Positions 3-32,048 of a stretch of DNA of 32,048 bases are shown here, in pieces; position 1 is the stretch's first letter, and the number at the start of each line of letters is the position of its first letter. This DNA is from Pseudomonadota bacterium (GTDB lineage: Bacteria; Pseudomonadota; Gammaproteobacteria; PS1; Pseudothioglobaceae): the NCBI GenBank assembly GCA_022600805.1, contig JAHZJR010000131.1, forward strand, positions 1 to 32,048, read 5' to 3'. The position numbers were made by a program, and so were the translations under genes. The notes beneath the pieces are model-generated. The model was not told where the DNA came from, did not search any database, and saw nothing but the letters and a program-made list of their open reading frames with translations.

Positions 3-1028
3 GAACAACAACCACAAACAGAAGAAATTGCTGATAAGACAGAGCGTATTAAAAGATTAGAAGCACTCAAAAAAATATTAAATGATCCAAAGAACACAAC
101 TAAAAAAGGAACTTTTGATAGAAGAAAGATAGGTAAGCTAAGAAAAGAGTTTTTAAATTATACAAGGTATATGGCTAGCTCAGCAGGTTCATTTGTAAAT
201 GAAGATGCAGTTAATCAAGCATTACAACTCTATGGAGTATTAACAGGTGATTTAGCAACAGCTAGTCTAGCTTCACTAGGAGTTAATGAAAGAACAGATG
301 CATATCAAATGTTAGCTGATGCATTAAATAGAAGTCTTAACACAGAAGTATTTACTCGTAAGAACTGTAAAAAGTCTCTTATGGTAACTTTATATGGTTC
401 ACAAAATGGTGCTACTGAAATTCTCAATGCAATGAAAATGCATGACAGTATGGAACTAGCCAACAAACTAGGTCTACAAGGTGTAGATGATGAATGGTTG
501 GACAAAGAATTCAATCTAGCTATGGCTACTATTGCACCTAAAGCTATGGAGGCTATGGAGTGTATGCAAGAACTTAATGATGAAAACATTGGAATATACA
601 ACTGGGTAATGCCTGATGGTTTCAGAGTTAAATATGATGTTAAATCTAATCAATCAGTTGAACTAAAAGCTAAATCTCGTGGTGGAATAAACTTCTCCTA
701 CAGTGGTTCTCACAAAGTCTATGCACCATCTAAATTCAATCGTGGTATGTCTCCTAATATTATTCACTCAGTCGATGGATATGTAGCGAGACAAATGGTT
801 AGACGTATGGGTGATAAGTTCATTAGTACAATCCATGACCAATTCAACTGTAGAGCTTGTGATGCACATATAATGCAACAGAACTATAATGACATCATGG
901 TAGAATTGCTGAACAGTGACTTGCTTAATGATATTATTAAACAAATCAATCCAAATGCAAGAACTATCAATAAATCAAATACACTAACAGAAGAGCTTAT
1001 TCAGTCTTCTTCTTACAGTATCTCTTAA
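3..1028 (+). CDS. T7-like single-subunit DNA-directed RNA polymerase, C-terminal part (5' end outside window)
   Basis: Frame of ORF 171..1028 is open to the window edge. Motif B-like TRKNCKKSLMVTLYGS (cf. T7 TRSVTKRSVMTLAYGS), PNIIHSVDG (cf. PNFVHSQDG), motif C-like IHDQFNCRACDA (cf. IHDSFGTIPADA), and a C-terminus resembling T7 RNAP ends. Confidence 0.9.
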   Translation, partial: EQQPQTEEIADKTERIKRLEALKKILNDPKNTTKKGTFDRRKIGKLRKEFLNYTRYMASSAGSFVNEDAVNQALQLYGVLTGDLATASLASLGVNERTDAYQMLADALNRSLNTEVFTRKNCKKSLMVTLYGSQNGATEILNAMKMHDSMELANKLGLQGVDDEWLDKEFNLAMATIAPKAMEAMECMQELNDENIGIYNWVMPDGFRVKYDVKSNQSVELKAKSRGGINFSYSGSHKVYAPSKFNRGMSPNIIHSVDGYVARQMVRRMGDKFISTIHDQFNCRACDAHIMQQNYNDIMVELLNSDLLNDIIKQINPNARTINKSNTLTEELIQSSSYSIS

Positions 1029-2950: not shown

Positions 2951-3026
2951 GTCCTGTTAGCTCAGTGAATAGAGCAGTAGACTTCTAATCTACAGGTCAC
3001 TGGTTTGAATCCAGTACGGGATACCA
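2951..3026 (+). tRNA. tRNA-Arg (anticodon UCU), encoded CCA
   Basis: Cloverleaf by eye: acceptor GTCCTGT/ACGGGAT, anticodon stem GTAGA/TCTAC with loop CTTCTAA (anticodon TCT), T-arm CTGGTTTGAATCCAG, 3' ACCA. Confidence 0.9.
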
Positions 3027-11959: not shown

Positions 11960-13075
11960 ATGGAAAATTGGGATGAAATCTTAATTGATTTAAAAACAAT
12001 GTCAGTAAGAGCAGTTGAACGAAAGTATGATTGTTATGATGGACAAGTAAGAAAAGCTTTAGTTAAAGCTGGACTAGACAACAATGGAAACATTAAAGAA
12101 GTAGTAAAAGAAGGTAAAGAACTGGTTAAAGGTGAATCTACTTTATATGATGAAGATGGAAACATTAAACTTAAATGGGTTAAAACTCATGTTAAGGAAC
12201 AGAGTGCATTAGAATCATTCTCAGAAGCATTAGAAGCATTAATTGATAATCCTAAGGTAATTAGTCCAGAAGAGATTAAAGAGCCTGTAGTGACCGATTA
12301 TGAGACGATGAGTGTATATACTATTGGTGATGCACATATTGGAATGTTAGCATGGGATAAAGAAACAGGTGAAGACCATGATTTAGAGATTGCTCAAAGA
12401 GATTTGTTAAGAGCAATGGATTTGCTAGTGGAACAATCTCATCCTAGTGAGAGAGCACTAATTGTAGATGTAGGTGATTGGTTTCACTCAGATAACATGA
12501 ACAATGTAACAGCACATTCAGGGAATTCTCTAGATGTAGATGGAAGATACCCCAAAGTATTAGAAATTGGATTGAGATTAGCTACTAAATTAATTGATAG
12601 AGCTTTACTGAAACATGAAAGAGTAGAATGGAGAAGTGCAATCGGAAATCACAATGAACATTCAGCTATTATGATGAGTGCATTCATTAAAGCATGGTAC
12701 AGAAATGAGCAGAGAGTTATCGTACATGATACACCTAATATGTTTTTCTATAGACCATTCGGTAAGAACTTAATTGGAATTACTCATGGACATACTTGCA
12801 AAGCAGAGAAACTAGGTGAAGTAATGAGTGTTGATTGTAAGGACCAATGGAGTGCTTCAGAGCATAGATATTGGTATACTGGACACATTCATCACCAGTC
12901 AGTAAAAGAGTTCTCTAACTGTGTTGTAGAGACGTTCAGAACACTTGCAGGTAAAGATGCTTGGCATTCAGCTAGTGGTTATCGTTCAAAGCAAGATATG
13001 AAGTGTATTACACTACATGAAGAATATGGTGAGATTAGTAGAAACACTGTTTCGTTAGGTATGATTCGTGGATAA
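11960..13075 (+). CDS. Calcineurin-like metallophosphoesterase (SbcD-like) with N-terminal HTH-like segment
   Basis: GDAHIG, DVGDWFH, GNHNEH, THGH, GHIHH metal-binding motifs. Confidence 0.8.
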   Translation: MENWDEILIDLKTMSVRAVERKYDCYDGQVRKALVKAGLDNNGNIKEVVKEGKELVKGESTLYDEDGNIKLKWVKTHVKEQSALESFSEALEALIDNPKVISPEEIKEPVVTDYETMSVYTIGDAHIGMLAWDKETGEDHDLEIAQRDLLRAMDLLVEQSHPSERALIVDVGDWFHSDNMNNVTAHSGNSLDVDGRYPKVLEIGLRLATKLIDRALLKHERVEWRSAIGNHNEHSAIMMSAFIKAWYRNEQRVIVHDTPNMFFYRPFGKNLIGITHGHTCKAEKLGEVMSVDCKDQWSASEHRYWYTGHIHHQSVKEFSNCVVETFRTLAGKDAWHSASGYRSKQDMKCITLHEEYGEISRNTVSLGMIRG

Positions 13076-14225
13076 AAAGGTTCTATATAATCCACAAGGT
13101 GTTGATTCATTAGAAGAAAAGCTTATTGGTGGTAATCCATCTGGTCTACTCAACTTCAATAAATCAAGATATGAATGGGCAGGTAAATTATACAAGTCTA
13201 TGAGAGATTGCTTCTGGACTCCAGAATCAGTTAATACAACAAGAGAGAAACTAAACTACCTAAAGTTGTCAGATGATGAAAAGTTCTCATACGATAGAGT
13301 GTTTGCACAATTATCATTCCTAGATAGTTTGATTGCAGATAGTCTAGCAGATAACCTAAATGGATATATTACCAATAAGGTAGTAAATGCATGTATCATA
13401 GAACAATCAGCACAAGAGGTACTACACAGTAAAAGCTATGCTGTTTTACTTGCAGACACAGTAGAGAACTCAAATGAAGTATTTGAATTGTATAAAAGTG
13501 ATTTAACACTAAATGCAAAGAATTCAGAAGTTCATAAAATGTTTGCAGAACTAACAGATGGTGAAGTAACTAGAGAAAAGATATTCTATGCTTTAGTAGC
13601 TAACCAATTACTAGAGGGAATCTTCTTTCAAACAGGATTTGCTACAATCTACTATCTTGGAGACAGAATGGTAGGAAGTGCAGATATGGTAAAAGAGATT
13701 CACAAGGATGAACTACATCATCTTAAACTATTTGAGAATATCATTAAAGAGTTCATTAAAGAAAATGATGATTTAGCTTGGTTTATGATTAGAGCTAAAG
13801 TAAATGCAATGTTTGATAAAGCTTATGAATTAGAATCTAGTTGGATGCATTACATATTAGGACATGCGTTTTCGAAACAAATTACAGATTCAACAGTAGC
13901 TTATTTCATCAAGAAGAGACAACAAGCAATTGGAATGTATGATGAACATAACGATAAATATGGATTTGGTGAAAAGACAATTTTAGTTAATGCTTTAAAT
14001 CAAAGAGAAATGGCAAATGAAACAAGAACTAATTTCTTTGAAGGTAAAGTATCCAACTATTCAAAACAAGAATTGAACTTTGATGATGCAGATGATGAGG
14101 TAATTAATCCAGAAGTAGGAACTACATGGAGATTAAAACAACCATCTTATCAGGAAGCAATCAGAGAGAAATCAACTGTAATAGATGTAGAAGACAGAAG
14201 TGGAGACTGCATAGGCTGTCAGTAA
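13068..14225 (+). CDS. Class I ribonucleotide reductase beta subunit
   Basis: ExxHxxxY motif (QEVLHSKSY), HKDELHHLKLFE and overall R2-like pattern; ends DRSGDCIGCQ. Confidence 0.85.
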   Translation: MDKKVLYNPQGVDSLEEKLIGGNPSGLLNFNKSRYEWAGKLYKSMRDCFWTPESVNTTREKLNYLKLSDDEKFSYDRVFAQLSFLDSLIADSLADNLNGYITNKVVNACIIEQSAQEVLHSKSYAVLLADTVENSNEVFELYKSDLTLNAKNSEVHKMFAELTDGEVTREKIFYALVANQLLEGIFFQTGFATIYYLGDRMVGSADMVKEIHKDELHHLKLFENIIKEFIKENDDLAWFMIRAKVNAMFDKAYELESSWMHYILGHAFSKQITDSTVAYFIKKRQQAIGMYDEHNDKYGFGEKTILVNALNQREMANETRTNFFEGKVSNYSKQELNFDDADDEVINPEVGTTWRLKQPSYQEAIREKSTVIDVEDRSGDCIGCQ

Positions 14226-14246
14226 ACTTAAATAAACCTTAGAATG

Positions 14247-14288
14247 CTTATTGACACACAAGAACGAATGTGATACAATGTCAGTAAG
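14247..14288 (+). promoter_or_regulatory. Sigma70-like promoter embedded in an interrupted inverted repeat upstream of HNH gene
   Basis: TTGACA (14251-14256) - 17 nt - TACAAT (14274-14279); arms CTTATTGACA (14247-14256) and TGTCAGTAAG (14279-14288), one G-U wobble. Confidence 0.65.
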
Positions 14289-14300
14289 AAAAGGATTAAA

Positions 14301-14750
14301 ATGTATGAAAAATATGAAATAAAAGAAGACGGAACTATTTGGAATAAGAAACTGAATAGATGGGTAAAAATGAAAGTAGAATCTCAAGGATATGTCTCTT
14401 GTTGTTTAAATAATAAAAAAGTAAGAGTTCACAGAATTTTAGCAGAAGCTTTTATTCCAAACCCAGAAAATCTACCAACAGTCAATCATATAGACGGAGA
14501 TAGAACAAACAACAGTCTGTCTAACCTAGAGTGGGCTAGTTATTCAAAGAATAATGCACATGCACACAAGGTGATTCAAAATAGGAAAAGTGTAAGGAAA
14601 CTTTCATATGAAGATATAGAATATATAAAATCTTCAGGAAAGTCAGGAGTGGAGTTAGCTGAGGAATTCAATATGAGTCCACAGCACATGAACTCTATCA
14701 AAAGAGGAATGTATCAAGTTGAGTATAAGGAGGCTAGAATATGCCAATAA
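14301..14750 (+). CDS. HNH homing endonuclease (NUMOD4-like N-terminus, HTH-like C-terminus)
   Basis: YEIKEDGTIWNKKLNRWVK..., VHRILAEAFIPNPENLPTVNHIDGDRTNNSLSNLEWAS HNH core. Confidence 0.9.
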   Translation: MYEKYEIKEDGTIWNKKLNRWVKMKVESQGYVSCCLNNKKVRVHRILAEAFIPNPENLPTVNHIDGDRTNNSLSNLEWASYSKNNAHAHKVIQNRKSVRKLSYEDIEYIKSSGKSGVELAEEFNMSPQHMNSIKRGMYQVEYKEARICQ

Positions 14751-14875
14751 GCACTTGTATGGTAAAGATTGATGGTGAACACTACTTTGGGTATGCAGAG
14801 ACTCTTTTAGAGGCTTGTAGCATAGCTACTGCTTCGTCTACAGATACAGTATTTAAAATCATAGGAGTATGGTAA
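14741..14875 (+). CDS. Hypothetical 44-aa protein
   Basis: MPISTCMVKIDGEHYFGYAETLLEACSIATASSTDTVFKIIGVW; RBS-like AAGGAGG upstream; not in the ORF track. Confidence 0.5.
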   Translation: MPISTCMVKIDGEHYFGYAETLLEACSIATASSTDTVFKIIGVW

Positions 14876-15453
14876 TGAAGGTAGTATTATTAAATTCTAC
14901 ACCATTAGAAGTAGCTGATTTAGCTATTGGTAAATGTTGGGATAAACAATGTGATACCGTAAATAAAGAGAGAATGAAAAGAGTTGGTATCAAGTTTAAA
15001 CATGCATCTACATTAGAGCATATTACATATAACTTTGATATTGATGGAATAAGTAGAGCATGCCTACAAGAGCTTGCAAGACACCGTATAAGCTCTTTCT
15101 CTGTAAAGTCAACTCGTTACACTCTAAAAGAGGTTAGAGAGCATGAAGGTTGCTTAGATGAGTTCTTAGTTAAAACAGGGAATCCTTATATAGAACAATT
15201 CAATTTGATTCAATTATTGGACTTACAAAAGGTATTGAGAAGTGGGATTTCTAATGACGAAGCAAAGTACATGATTCCAGAAGCATTCAAGACTTCTTTA
15301 GTATGGACTATAAACCTGAGAGCATTAAGAAATTTCTTGCAACTAAGACTAAGTAAGAGTGCATTATGGGAGATTAGAGACTTAGCAAATGAGATACTTA
15401 AAGTAATTCCAAATGAGCATATGTTTCTATTTGAGGATTTAATAGATGAGTAA
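14875..15453 (+). CDS. thyX: Flavin-dependent thymidylate synthase
   Basis: RHRISSFSVKSTRY (ThyX RHRxxSxxxxSxRY motif), NLRALRNFLQLRLSKSALWEIRDLA. Confidence 0.92.
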   Translation: MKVVLLNSTPLEVADLAIGKCWDKQCDTVNKERMKRVGIKFKHASTLEHITYNFDIDGISRACLQELARHRISSFSVKSTRYTLKEVREHEGCLDEFLVKTGNPYIEQFNLIQLLDLQKVLRSGISNDEAKYMIPEAFKTSLVWTINLRALRNFLQLRLSKSALWEIRDLANEILKVIPNEHMFLFEDLIDE

Positions 15454-29275: not shown

Positions 29276-29761
29276 TTGGCTACACAATTAACAGTAGGTA
29301 CAAAAAATCTAAAAGACTTATCTCTTACAGAGTTACGAGAATTATTAGACGAGAAAGAGGTTAGCTACACTAAGCAAGCAAAACAAGCTGGACTAATTAA
29401 ATTAATTATGGAATCAGGCAAATTTGATACACCACGTAAAGATGGTGGATTAGAAAAAGATGGAAAATTAGTACATCCTATTCATGGAGAATACATTCGT
29501 TGTATTGTTCACCCACAAGCTTTACATAATCAAAATGGTTCTATCTATGTAGGTATTAATAAGTACAATGTACAATTTGAACCTAGAACACCAATCAAAT
29601 TACCGAAGGGTGTAATTAAGTTCTTAAAAAATGCAACAGAAGCAGAGCATGTATTTGATGCTAATGCTATCTCGGATAATGGCAATATGGGAGCACATAT
29701 TACAGTTCAGAAACCTAAGTTTGTAGTAGAAGTCTTATTGGATGATGAAGACGAAGAATAA
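29276..29761 (+). CDS. Structural protein with N-terminal SAP/HeH-like motif (TTG start)
   Basis: NLKDLSLTELRELLDEKEVSYTKQAKQAGLIKLI; position after MCP. Confidence 0.5.
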   Translation: MATQLTVGTKNLKDLSLTELRELLDEKEVSYTKQAKQAGLIKLIMESGKFDTPRKDGGLEKDGKLVHPIHGEYIRCIVHPQALHNQNGSIYVGINKYNVQFEPRTPIKLPKGVIKFLKNATEAEHVFDANAISDNGNMGAHITVQKPKFVVEVLLDDEDEE

Positions 29762-30040: not shown

Positions 30041-31204
30041 ATGGCATTTGGTCAATTGAATTTAACAAAGACCGTTGCACCACAGCAGACAGTTTCGACT
30101 TCTGCTTTGGCTAATTTAATGCAACAAAGAGATAAAGCACTACAAAACGTAGGGCAAGGTATTACACAACTTGGAGAACAAGCTGGAGAATACGGAAGAC
30201 AAAGAAACACCAGTGAACTAACTGACTTGATTGCAAGGAGTCCGATAGCTGAATTGGATGCAGATGGAATCAGAACACTAACTGGTGAAGAAGGTATTGA
30301 TACATCCAGACTAACTAAAGAAGGAACTGATGAGTTTAATAGATTGCTTCAGGGAAAGGATGCTTTTGCCAAACAAGGAACTGGAGTAATCCTAAAAGAT
30401 GGTACTTTTAGAGACTTAGCTGGACAAGAGGGTGTAGTCCCAGAACAGGTAAGAACACCAGAGTTCTATATGGGGTTCAAGTCAGGTGATAAAACATTTG
30501 ACAGGTCATTGGAAGGTCAGACTCTAGAAGATAAAAAAGCATTGATTGACGGATACATGGATGGTCAAACAAGAGCTAAAGAATTATTTAGAGATGACAA
30601 GAACGGTAAACCAGTACATGATGGATTTGTTTTCATTCATCAAGGAAAACCAATCACAGCTCTAGAATTAAGACAAAAGATTGGTAAGAATCAAACTATC
30701 ATTGATGACCCAACTCAAACACCTTTAAAAAAAGAGAAAGCTCAACAAGAAAATGATGAACTTACTCAGACTACTTCTCAGGTGAACAAACCAACTATAG
30801 GACAAATGAATCAGCAACCTCAACTAACAAACACTGAGATGATGAATCAAAGTTTATTACCACCAGAATTACAAACTCCTAGAAAAATTCCAGTAACTTC
30901 AACACCAATAGAAACTGGAATAGGGGGATTAATAAATAGGTCACTACCTATTGACGTAGTCTTGGAACAGCAAGAGTTATCTCCACAGCAATTAGAACAG
31001 GCTAATCAAACTGCAAACACAAATGTGGCAGAGAAGCTAACTAAGAAGCAAACGGAAGAAACTAAGAAACAAATCAATACTTTACAGACATTGTTTGCAA
31101 GAACAGGTGATGAAAGATATTTACAAGGATTAAACAATCTACAAGCATTGCTACAAGGTAATCCTAATAATCCTCCTCAAGGTAAGTCTACTAGCAGACC
31201 CTAG
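30041..31204 (+). CDS. Putative internal virion protein, frame-0 product
   Basis: 387 aa, Q/T/N-rich C-terminal half; ends CCC TAG. Confidence 0.65.
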   Translation: MAFGQLNLTKTVAPQQTVSTSALANLMQQRDKALQNVGQGITQLGEQAGEYGRQRNTSELTDLIARSPIAELDADGIRTLTGEEGIDTSRLTKEGTDEFNRLLQGKDAFAKQGTGVILKDGTFRDLAGQEGVVPEQVRTPEFYMGFKSGDKTFDRSLEGQTLEDKKALIDGYMDGQTRAKELFRDDKNGKPVHDGFVFIHQGKPITALELRQKIGKNQTIIDDPTQTPLKKEKAQQENDELTQTTSQVNKPTIGQMNQQPQLTNTEMMNQSLLPPELQTPRKIPVTSTPIETGIGGLINRSLPIDVVLEQQELSPQQLEQANQTANTNVAEKLTKKQTEETKKQINTLQTLFARTGDERYLQGLNNLQALLQGNPNNPPQGKSTSRP

Positions 31205-31226
31205 TATTGCTCCTGAAGCAGGAGCA
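31199..31226 (+). promoter_or_regulatory. Candidate programmed +1 frameshift site and stimulatory hairpin
   Basis: CCC_TAG_T (CCC to CCT slip) followed by TGCTCCTG-AAG-CAGGAGCA at 31208-31226. Confidence 0.7.
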
Positions 31227-31697
31227 GTTAAGACTTTAGTATCAGGAAGTGATGAAAAGGGATTAACAAAAGGAAAAAAACACTTAGTTAACAGAGAAGG
31301 ATATAGAGATGTCTCATATAAAGATACTCAAGGAAATCTCACAGGTGGAACTGGACATCTTCTGACTGAAAATGAAAAGAAACTATATCCTGAAGGAACT
31401 AAAATTCCAAAGAGTGTAACAGACAAGTGGTTCAAGGAGGATTCAGCTAAAGCAAGAGAGAGTGGAAATAATCAAGCAAAAGACTTAGGAATTACATCAG
31501 AAGATTTTAAAGATGCTTTAATGTCAGTGAATTTTCAATTAGGTGGAAACTGGAAGAAGATTCACAAGAAAACTTGGGAAGCTTTAGAAAAGAAAGATTA
31601 CAAAGGAGCTATTGCTGAAATCAAGAAATCTACTTGGCATAAGCAAACACCAAAAAGAAGTAATGACTTCATCAAAGCTATATCAAAATTAAAATAA
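31200..31697 (+). CDS. T4-lysozyme-like (GH24) domain in the +1 frame, fused to the 30041 ORF via frameshift
   Basis: LVNREGYRDVSYKDTQGNLTGGTGHLLT keeps the E-(8)-D-(5)-T spacing of T4 lysozyme E11/D20/T26; no ATG/GTG/TTG upstream of the catalytic Glu in this frame. Confidence 0.85.
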   Translation, partial: PSIAPEAGAVKTLVSGSDEKGLTKGKKHLVNREGYRDVSYKDTQGNLTGGTGHLLTENEKKLYPEGTKIPKSVTDKWFKEDSAKARESGNNQAKDLGITSEDFKDALMSVNFQLGGNWKKIHKKTWEALEKKDYKGAIAEIKKSTWHKQTPKRSNDFIKAISKLK

Positions 31698-31706
31698 GGA
31701 GAATCG

Positions 31707-32048
31707 ATGGGATTTAATGAATTAATCAATCCAGTAGCTCAAACAATAAGAGATGCTACACCTACTTTTCTAGGTGGAGAGAATGAAGCTAATGTTAATC
31801 CATCAACTCCATTTTATCAACCAGATAGAGTAGAAGATAGTAGCAAGTTATTTGCAACTAACAATAAAACTTTCAATAGAAAGTCTCCAGAAGAATTACA
31901 GCAATTCGTAGGAGAGAATCTAAAACCTTCAAACAATCCAGAAGATAGACACTTTTATATATTAGAAGATGAATTTGGTAATCAAAAAATAGGTACTGCT
32001 AAAGGTAATGCTTATGAAAGATATAGAAATGACCCAGCTTTTCAAAGC
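31707..32048 (+). CDS. Virion protein, N-terminal part (runs off 3' edge)
   Basis: Open frame MGFNELINPVAQTIRDATPTFLGGENEANVNPSTPFYQPDRV... after AAGGAGAATCG. Confidence 0.65.
   Translation, partial: MGFNELINPVAQTIRDATPTFLGGENEANVNPSTPFYQPDRVEDSSKLFATNNKTFNRKSPEELQQFVGENLKPSNNPEDRHFYILEDEFGNQKIGTAKGNAYERYRNDPAFQS

What the first reader, a model, noticed from the sequence alone, without database searches (positions are those of the whole stretch)
30041..31697. Putative programmed +1 frameshift (CCC_TAG_T plus adjacent hairpin) producing a virion protein-lysozyme fusion
Seen directly: ORF 30041-31204 ends in AGA CCC TAG. The +1 frame (CCT AGT ATT GCT...) is open from about 31131 to 31697 and encodes a T4-lysozyme-like domain with conserved E/D/T spacing. 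That frame has no ATG, GTG or TTG before the catalytic Glu; its first Met lies well past it (DALMSVNF). A perfect 8-bp stem with a 3-nt loop (TGCTCCTG-AAG-CAGGAGCA) starts 3 nt after the stop codon. Established: +1 slippage of P-site tRNA-Pro from CCC to CCU next to a slow stop codon is a known recoding mode, reported for structural genes of Listeria phage PSA. Inference: a minor fraction of the 387-aa virion protein is extended by about 165 aa of lysozyme, giving a stoichiometry-controlled ejection lysozyme analogous in role to the T7 gp16 peptidoglycan-cleaving domain.
Basis: partly seen in the sequence, partly recalled or inferred. Interest (0 to 1): 0.9.

Follow-up and report, generated by a model that had tools for sequence, protein, structure and literature searches.

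The report
Frameshift-made phage ejection-protein lysozyme fusion
A phage appears to make some copies of an internal virion protein with an added cell-wall-cutting lysozyme by having ribosomes slip one base forward at a CCC codon next to a stop codon, and a distant relative keeps the same slip signal, although the shift has not been measured.

Summary
ORF 30041-31204 ends AGA CCC TAG. The +1 frame encodes a T4-type lysozyme (PF00959, E 1e-9) with no ATG/GTG/TTG before the catalytic Glu, and an 8-bp hairpin starts 3 nt after the stop.

A homologue in another metagenome (L003; capsid protein 78% identical, this protein 44%) also ends ACA CCC TAG and also has a hairpin right after the stop. Across this stop 12 of 14 neighbouring bases match; six other homologous gene ends of the same pair match at 2-9 of 14, and the 30 nt upstream are at chance. 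CCC is very rare (4 of 9057 codons). Codon usage switches frame at the CCC in both phages. A third relative (L004) has a transglycosylase-like domain fused in frame to the same gene. A sequencing indel is therefore very unlikely, and +1 frameshifting is the best explanation (about 0.7).

The serious rival is an independent start: in L003 the +1 frame has an ATG with a perfect Shine-Dalgarno inside the overlap; the window has ATC at the aligned place.

The mechanism and phage precedent (CCC_UGA in Listeria phages) are known. An ejection-protein/lysozyme fusion made this way was not found in the literature searched. No shift was measured, and relatives are few.

The parts
30041..31204 (+). Zero-frame gene, 387 aa; proposed internal (ejection) virion protein: helical N-terminal part, small domain about 139-245, disordered linker, helix, then linker running into the shift site
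   Evidence: 44% identical to L003:6150-7064 over 237 aa; weak N-terminal similarity to L004; position between capsid genes and the giant gene; AF2 model of low confidence
31199..31205 (+). Proposed +1 shift site CCC_TAG_T: tRNA-Pro slips from CCC to CCT while the stop codon waits in the A site
   Evidence: conserved in L003:7059-7064
31206..31228 (+). Hairpin starting right after the stop (8 perfect pairs at 31208-31226, 10 pairs in the RNA fold, 3-nt loop)
   Evidence: counterpart hairpin in L003:7061-7090
31134..31697 (+). +1 frame, stop to stop; from 31200 on it encodes PSIAPEAGAVK... and the lysozyme (165 codons)
   Evidence: codon-usage signal changes to this frame at the CCC
31293..31649 (+). 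T4-type lysozyme domain (E 31296-31298, D 31323-31325, T 31341-31343)
   Evidence: PF00959; PHROG 2083; PDB matches
31125..31139 (+). Rival element: AAGGA, 7 nt, ATC in the +1 frame, aligned with AGGAGG-AAACA-ATG in L003 (7003)
   Evidence: arms 31121-31132/31159-31170 could pair and cover the AAGGA
31707..32048 (+). Start of the next gene (SD AAGGAG), cut by the contig end; N-terminus resembles the giant, RNA-polymerase-like protein of relatives

Best explanation
The gene at 30041-31204 encodes an internal (ejection) virion protein. Most ribosomes stop at TAG and make the 387-aa form. A fraction slips +1 when peptidyl-tRNA-Pro sits on the rare CCC and the TAG in the A site is slow to be read; it re-pairs with CCU and continues in the +1 frame, adding about 165 residues that end in a T4-type lysozyme. 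The hairpin directly after the stop probably slows termination or helps the shift. The virion would then carry a mixture of plain and lysozyme-tipped copies, and the lysozyme would open peptidoglycan during DNA ejection, as the T7 gp16 transglycosylase domain or the K1E gp35 lysozyme is thought to do. Shown: the sequence layout, the lysozyme homology, conservation of CCC_TAG plus hairpin in one relative, and an in-frame hydrolase-like fusion in another. Inferred: the shift itself, its rate, virion location and function.
For: (1) The frame is open and contains a lysozyme with the T4 catalytic spacing but no usual start. (2) L003, from a different metagenome, has the homologous gene ending ACA CCC TAG with the +1 frame open to the contig end (PSIAP...). 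12 of 14 bases next to the stop match, against 2-9 of 14 at six other homologous gene ends, while the 30 nt upstream match at 8 of 30. (3) The two differences just after the stop are third positions of +1 codons (AGT/AGC, ATT/ATA), as expected if the +1 frame is read from the shift site on. (4) Both have a hairpin directly after the stop: window -14.1, z -2.9; L003 -15.3, z -5.0. The shared 3' arm GGAGC lies in different +1 reading phases in the two, so protein conservation does not explain it. (5) CCC is 4 of 9057 codons in the window and 1 of 2134 in L003; only these two of 194 long ORFs end CCC + stop. (6) Codon-usage score per codon: zero frame 0.77 up to the stop (coding mean 0.76), +1 frame -0.37 before the CCC and 1.47 just after; L003 gives 0.9, -0.5 and 0.5. 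(7) L004 has a transglycosylase-like domain in frame with the same gene, so an enzyme fusion here is natural. (8) The only tRNA-Pro found in the binned genome has anticodon UGG; the E. coli UGG isoacceptor pairs weakly with CCC and shifts readily (PMC4519876). +1 shifting at CCC_UGA is used by Listeria phages and reaches 15% at E. coli pheL (PMC5009743).
Against: No direct evidence of shifting. Only two sequences share the site, and L003 ends 19 codons into the +1 frame, so its extension is not known to be a lysozyme. L003 holds an in-frame ATG with a perfect Shine-Dalgarno in the overlap (expected by chance about 0.003 per 24 codons), and the +1 frame before the CCC is unusually hydrophobic in both phages (2.6% and 4.6% tails), as a signal or anchor would be. 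Three relatives lack any lysozyme at this gene (L041, L044, L050). The hairpin begins closer to the stop than usual stimulators, and 3' stem-loops near bacterial stops are not known to promote frameshifting (PMC5009743). A free local alignment of the whole region does not single out the site (108 of 500 shuffles as good); the case rests on anchoring at the stop.
Confidence: 0.7

Rival explanations
1. The lysozyme is a separate gene overlapping the upstream gene by about 60 nt in the +1 frame. It starts at an unusual codon (ATC 31137, preceded by AAGGA) in the window and at ATG 7003 in L003, giving a protein with a hydrophobic N-terminus (signal or signal-arrest-release type), perhaps the lysis enzyme of the phage.
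For: L003: AGAGGAGGAAACA-ATG in the +1 frame, rare by chance. The aligned window stretch is AAGGATTAAACA-ATC. The +1 N-terminal stretches are hydrophobic in both. No other lysis enzyme was recognised in the 32 kb, although the contig lacks part of the genome.
Against: ATC is almost never used as a start (general knowledge). Codon usage of the +1 frame before the CCC looks poorly coding in both phages. It does not explain the rare CCC before the stop or the hairpin conserved across it. The L003 ATG site is more paired than all seven real starts of that contig (0.23 against 0.40-0.79 unpaired). The closest relatives of the domain are internal virion lysozymes, not endolysins. Relatives L041 and L050 have an endolysin-family gene elsewhere.
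Confidence: 0.18
2. A one-base sequencing or assembly error in a gene that is really one continuous frame.
For: L004 has a continuous frame through a different enzyme domain. The window is a contig of a draft, many-contig genome bin.
Against: L003, an independent contig with a diverged sequence, has the same CCC TAG and the same frame relation. The other long ORFs of the window are intact, and there is no homopolymer longer than CCC at the site.
Confidence: 0.04
3. Stop-coupled reinitiation at the ATT/ATA codon one base after the TAG, or at a nearby codon in the hairpin (ATG in L003), makes a separate lysozyme without a fusion.
For: Ile codons ATT (window) and ATA (L003) lie one base after the TAG, and L003 has an in-frame ATG about 10 nt after the TAG.
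Against: No Shine-Dalgarno at the proper distance; ATT and ATA are very weak starts; the window has Glu where L003 has Met; the strong hairpin covers the region; CCC conservation is unexplained.
Confidence: 0.05
4. The lysozyme is a decaying, unexpressed remnant, and the hairpin acts only in mRNA stability or ribosome rescue.
For: Several relatives lack the domain.
Against: The domain is intact over 165 codons with coding-like codon usage and the catalytic residues, and the shift site is conserved in L003.
Confidence: 0.03

Closest known systems
Listeria phages PSA, A118 and A500, tsh gene (+1 shift at AAA CCC_UGA), and PSA cps (ACA_CCC_UCC)
   Same: +1 shift on a CCC proline codon, next to a stop in tsh; low-GC phage; C-terminally extended virion protein (PMC5009743)
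   Different: The product here is an ejection-type protein with an enzyme domain; the stop is UAG; a simple hairpin starts 1-3 nt after the stop; not demonstrated
E. coli pheL CCC_UGA
   Same: Same P-site codon next to a stop; 15% shifting reported in E. coli K12 (PMC5009743)
   Different: Cellular leader peptide with no functional extension; different stop codon
T7 gp16 and K1E/K1-5 gp35 ejection proteins with peptidoglycan hydrolase domains
   Same: Internal virion protein carrying a wall-cutting domain; domains are swapped among ejection proteins (PMC8954989)
   Different: Those are single-frame proteins (as far as I know); here only a fraction of copies would carry the enzyme
PHROG 2083 'internal virion lysozyme motif' (for example Pseudomonas phage phi-2) and the PDB internal virion protein 28sd/9sfd/9sfn
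   Same: Best sequence match of the lysozyme domain, also at the C-terminus of an internal virion protein
   Different: No similarity outside the lysozyme was found
T4 gene 60 bypassing element
   Same: UAG next to the take-off codon with a stem-loop at the site (PMC5009743)
   Different: [quoted passage not shown] here a one-base shift suffices

Membership tests
Programmed +1 ribosomal frameshift (CCC + stop type) | Slippery P-site codon able to re-pair in +1 (CCC to CCU) followed by a slow A-site codon | tested here: met
   CCC_TAG_T at 31199-31205 and CCC_TAG in L003; CCC rare
Programmed +1 ribosomal frameshift (CCC + stop type) | Long open +1 frame with a conserved domain and no own usual start | tested here: met
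   Window. In L003 the extension is cut at 19 codons and has a possible start
Programmed +1 ribosomal frameshift (CCC + stop type) | Conservation of site and stimulator across relatives | tested here: met
   One diverged relative only
Programmed +1 ribosomal frameshift (CCC + stop type) | Trans-frame product detected | not testable with these tools
   Needs mass spectrometry or a reporter
T4-type phage lysozyme (PF00959) | Profile match above the curated cut-off | tested here: met
   39.2 bits against cut-off 22.3
T4-type phage lysozyme (PF00959) | Catalytic E-x8-D-x5-T | tested here: met
   E 31296-31298, D 31323-31325, T 31341-31343, read from the translation; the T4 lysozyme matches start with query Glu 34 on T4 residue 11
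Podovirus ejection (internal virion) protein | Gene position in the head/ejection module | tested here: met
   Portal, scaffold-like gene, capsid, two small genes, this gene, then a giant gene, in the relatives that reach this far
Podovirus ejection (internal virion) protein | Homology to gp14/gp15/gp16-type proteins | tested here: inconclusive
   No profile match for the 387-aa part; AF2 model too poor to search
Podovirus ejection (internal virion) protein | Presence in virions and ejection into the cell | not testable with these tools
   Needs virion proteomics
Signal-arrest-release endolysin (considered) | Own start codon and N-terminal hydrophobic segment ahead of the lysozyme | tested here: inconclusive
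   Hydrophobic +1 stretch present; usual start absent in the window, present in L003

The most novel reading that the evidence does not exclude
A lineage of small podovirus-like phages with N4-like RNA polymerases uses a conserved +1 frameshift at CCC_TAG, with a hairpin at the stop, to set the number of lysozyme-bearing copies of an ejection protein per virion, while relatives fuse a different hydrolase in frame or have none.
Probability: 0.6. Interest if true: 0.72.

Novelty: new variant of a known kind. Interest (0 to 1): 0.62.

Why it matters
Programmed frameshifts in tailed phages are known for capsid, tail-tube and tail-assembly proteins. One that meters a cell-wall enzyme inside the DNA-ejection machinery would show recoding used to set how many copies of an internal particle protein are armed. 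It would also mean that annotation misses such lysozymes, because the frame has no start codon. The system is small and can be tested with a reporter or by virion proteomics.

Tried and rejected
Scans of viral contigs (8 of 8) with the lysozyme, the 387-aa protein, capsid, portal, the gene 29276-29761 and the DNA motif gave nine loci that are relatives at the capsid module; only L003 has the CCC_TAG. Both genome-contig scans, and capsid searches of 193 related genomes and 399 of the same phylum, found no close relative outside the window's own genome. The 17-base motif occurs in 27 other viral contigs, none of them relatives of this module; L015 has a 275-codon frame ending CCC TAG, but its +1 frame is open for only 18 codons. 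Readthrough of the TAG is excluded by a TGA a few codons later in the zero frame. An intrinsic terminator was not found. Rfam gave nothing relevant. The AF2 model of the 387-aa part was too poor to use (pLDDT 51). Accessibility of the rival ATC start was average and so not informative. The papers searched contain no frameshift-made ejection lysozyme that I could find; subscription journals are mostly missing from that library.

Full report
WHAT IS THERE. The 387-aa gene 30041-31204 ends AGC AGA CCC TAG. The +1 frame is open from 31134 to 31697. From the CCT at 31200 it encodes PSIAPEAGAVK and then a T4-type lysozyme: PF00959 at 1e-9, PHROG 2083 'internal virion lysozyme motif' at 1e-18, and, in the PDB, an internal virion protein at 9e-14 ahead of all T4 lysozymes. 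The catalytic spacing E-x8-D-x5-T is that of T4 lysozyme. No ATG, GTG or TTG precedes the Glu. A perfect 8-bp hairpin lies at 31208-31226; the fold gives 10 pairs and -14.1 kcal/mol, matched by 0.07% of random 32-nt stretches of the window.

SURROUNDINGS. The window is contig 114 of a 1.74-Mb, 149-contig genome and looks like an incomplete phage contig. It has the C-terminal part of an RNA polymerase at its start and a primase, terminase, an SU10-type portal and a major head protein, and ends inside the gene that follows the lysozyme. In relatives that gene is a giant protein with RNA-polymerase-like motifs.

RELATIVES. Capsid and neighbour searches gave nine related viral contigs. L003 (capsid 78%) has the homologous protein, 44% identical over 237 aa, ending ACA CCC TAG, with the +1 frame open to the contig end as PSIAPMEQLLEKPINWESE. 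L004 (capsid 66%) reads in one frame from a protein of the same position, with weak N-terminal similarity, into a transglycosylase-like domain (PHROG 3310 at 1e-3; motif ESSGKVDAKNPNSSAYGLYQF). L041, L044, L050 and L052 have shorter genes in this slot with no added domain. So the slot carries different wall enzymes or none.

CONSERVATION OF THE SITE. Anchored at the stop codon, 12 of 14 adjacent bases agree between the window and L003, while the 30 bases upstream agree at 8 of 30. Six other homologous gene ends of the same two phages, including capsid and portal, agree at 2-9 of 14. The two differences after the stop are third positions of +1 codons. The shared hairpin arms GCTCC/GGAGC are kept although the 3' arm falls in a different +1 codon phase in the two phages. 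The L003 fold takes the UAG into an outer stem: -15.3 kcal/mol, z -5.0. A free local alignment of the whole region does not stand out from shuffles, so the argument rests on position.

FRAME SWITCH. With codon usage learned from the phage's own genes, the zero frame scores as coding up to the stop; the +1 frame scores well below coding before the CCC and as coding straight after it, in both phages. CCC is 4 of 9057 codons, and only these two of 194 long ORFs end in CCC + stop.

MECHANISM. If the genome the contig was binned with is the host, its only detected tRNA-Pro has anticodon UGG. In E. coli that isoacceptor pairs weakly with CCC and slips (PMC4519876). Listeria phages use +1 shifting at CCC_UGA for a tail protein, and E. 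coli pheL shifts at 15% at CCC_UGA (PMC5009743). The simplest reading is P-site slippage from CCC to CCU while UAG awaits release factor 1. Rate and stimulation by the hairpin are inferred.

THE RIVAL THAT REMAINS. In L003 the +1 frame contains AGAGGAGGAAACA-ATG 56 nt before the CCC, a perfect ribosome-binding site expected about 0.003 times by chance in this span. The aligned stretch in the window is AAGGATTAAACA-ATC. Translation from there would give a hydrophobic N-terminus in both. Against it: ATC is not a credible strong start, the +1 codon usage is poor there, the L003 site is more paired than the contig's real starts, and CCC and the hairpin stay unexplained. Endolysin-family genes lie elsewhere in two relatives, so this lysozyme need not be the lysis enzyme, but the corresponding part of the window's genome may be missing. 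I give this rival 0.18.

VERDICT. Observation confirmed. The frameshift reading is the best supported but unproven (0.7). It is a new variant of a known kind: a known recoding mode applied to a new type of product.

Noticed in passing
L050:8613-13502, L041:4696-8784, window 31707-32048: The gene after the ejection-protein slot in relatives is giant (1363 to 1629 aa or more) and carries T7/N4-type RNA polymerase motifs (PHROG 2051 near the C-terminus in L050; similar motif by eye in L041), although separate RNA polymerase genes are also present in these phages. It may be a virion-packaged polymerase or a derived domain.
   Followed up: partly
window 3-1028: The contig begins inside an RNA polymerase gene (PHROG 414/2051, C-terminal part) and ends inside the gene after the lysozyme, so it is probably an incomplete phage genome binned with a bacterial genome.
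   Followed up: partly
L004:4055-5611: Ejection-type protein with an in-frame lytic-transglycosylase-like C-terminus in the slot where the window has the +1 lysozyme.
   Followed up: yes
L102 (contig of L050, 28172-28570, minus strand): Endolysin-family match (PHROG 894, 6e-43) that runs through several stop codons, possibly a split or interrupted gene.
   Followed up: no
L015, minus strand, about 10233: Unrelated contig with a 275-codon frame ending AGA CCC TAG and the same 17-base motif, but only 18 open +1 codons.
   Followed up: no
window 2951-3026 and 11960-15453: tRNA-Arg (TCT), and nucleotide-metabolism genes: DNA repair exonuclease, ribonucleotide reductase small subunit, HNH endonuclease, thymidylate synthase.
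   Followed up: no
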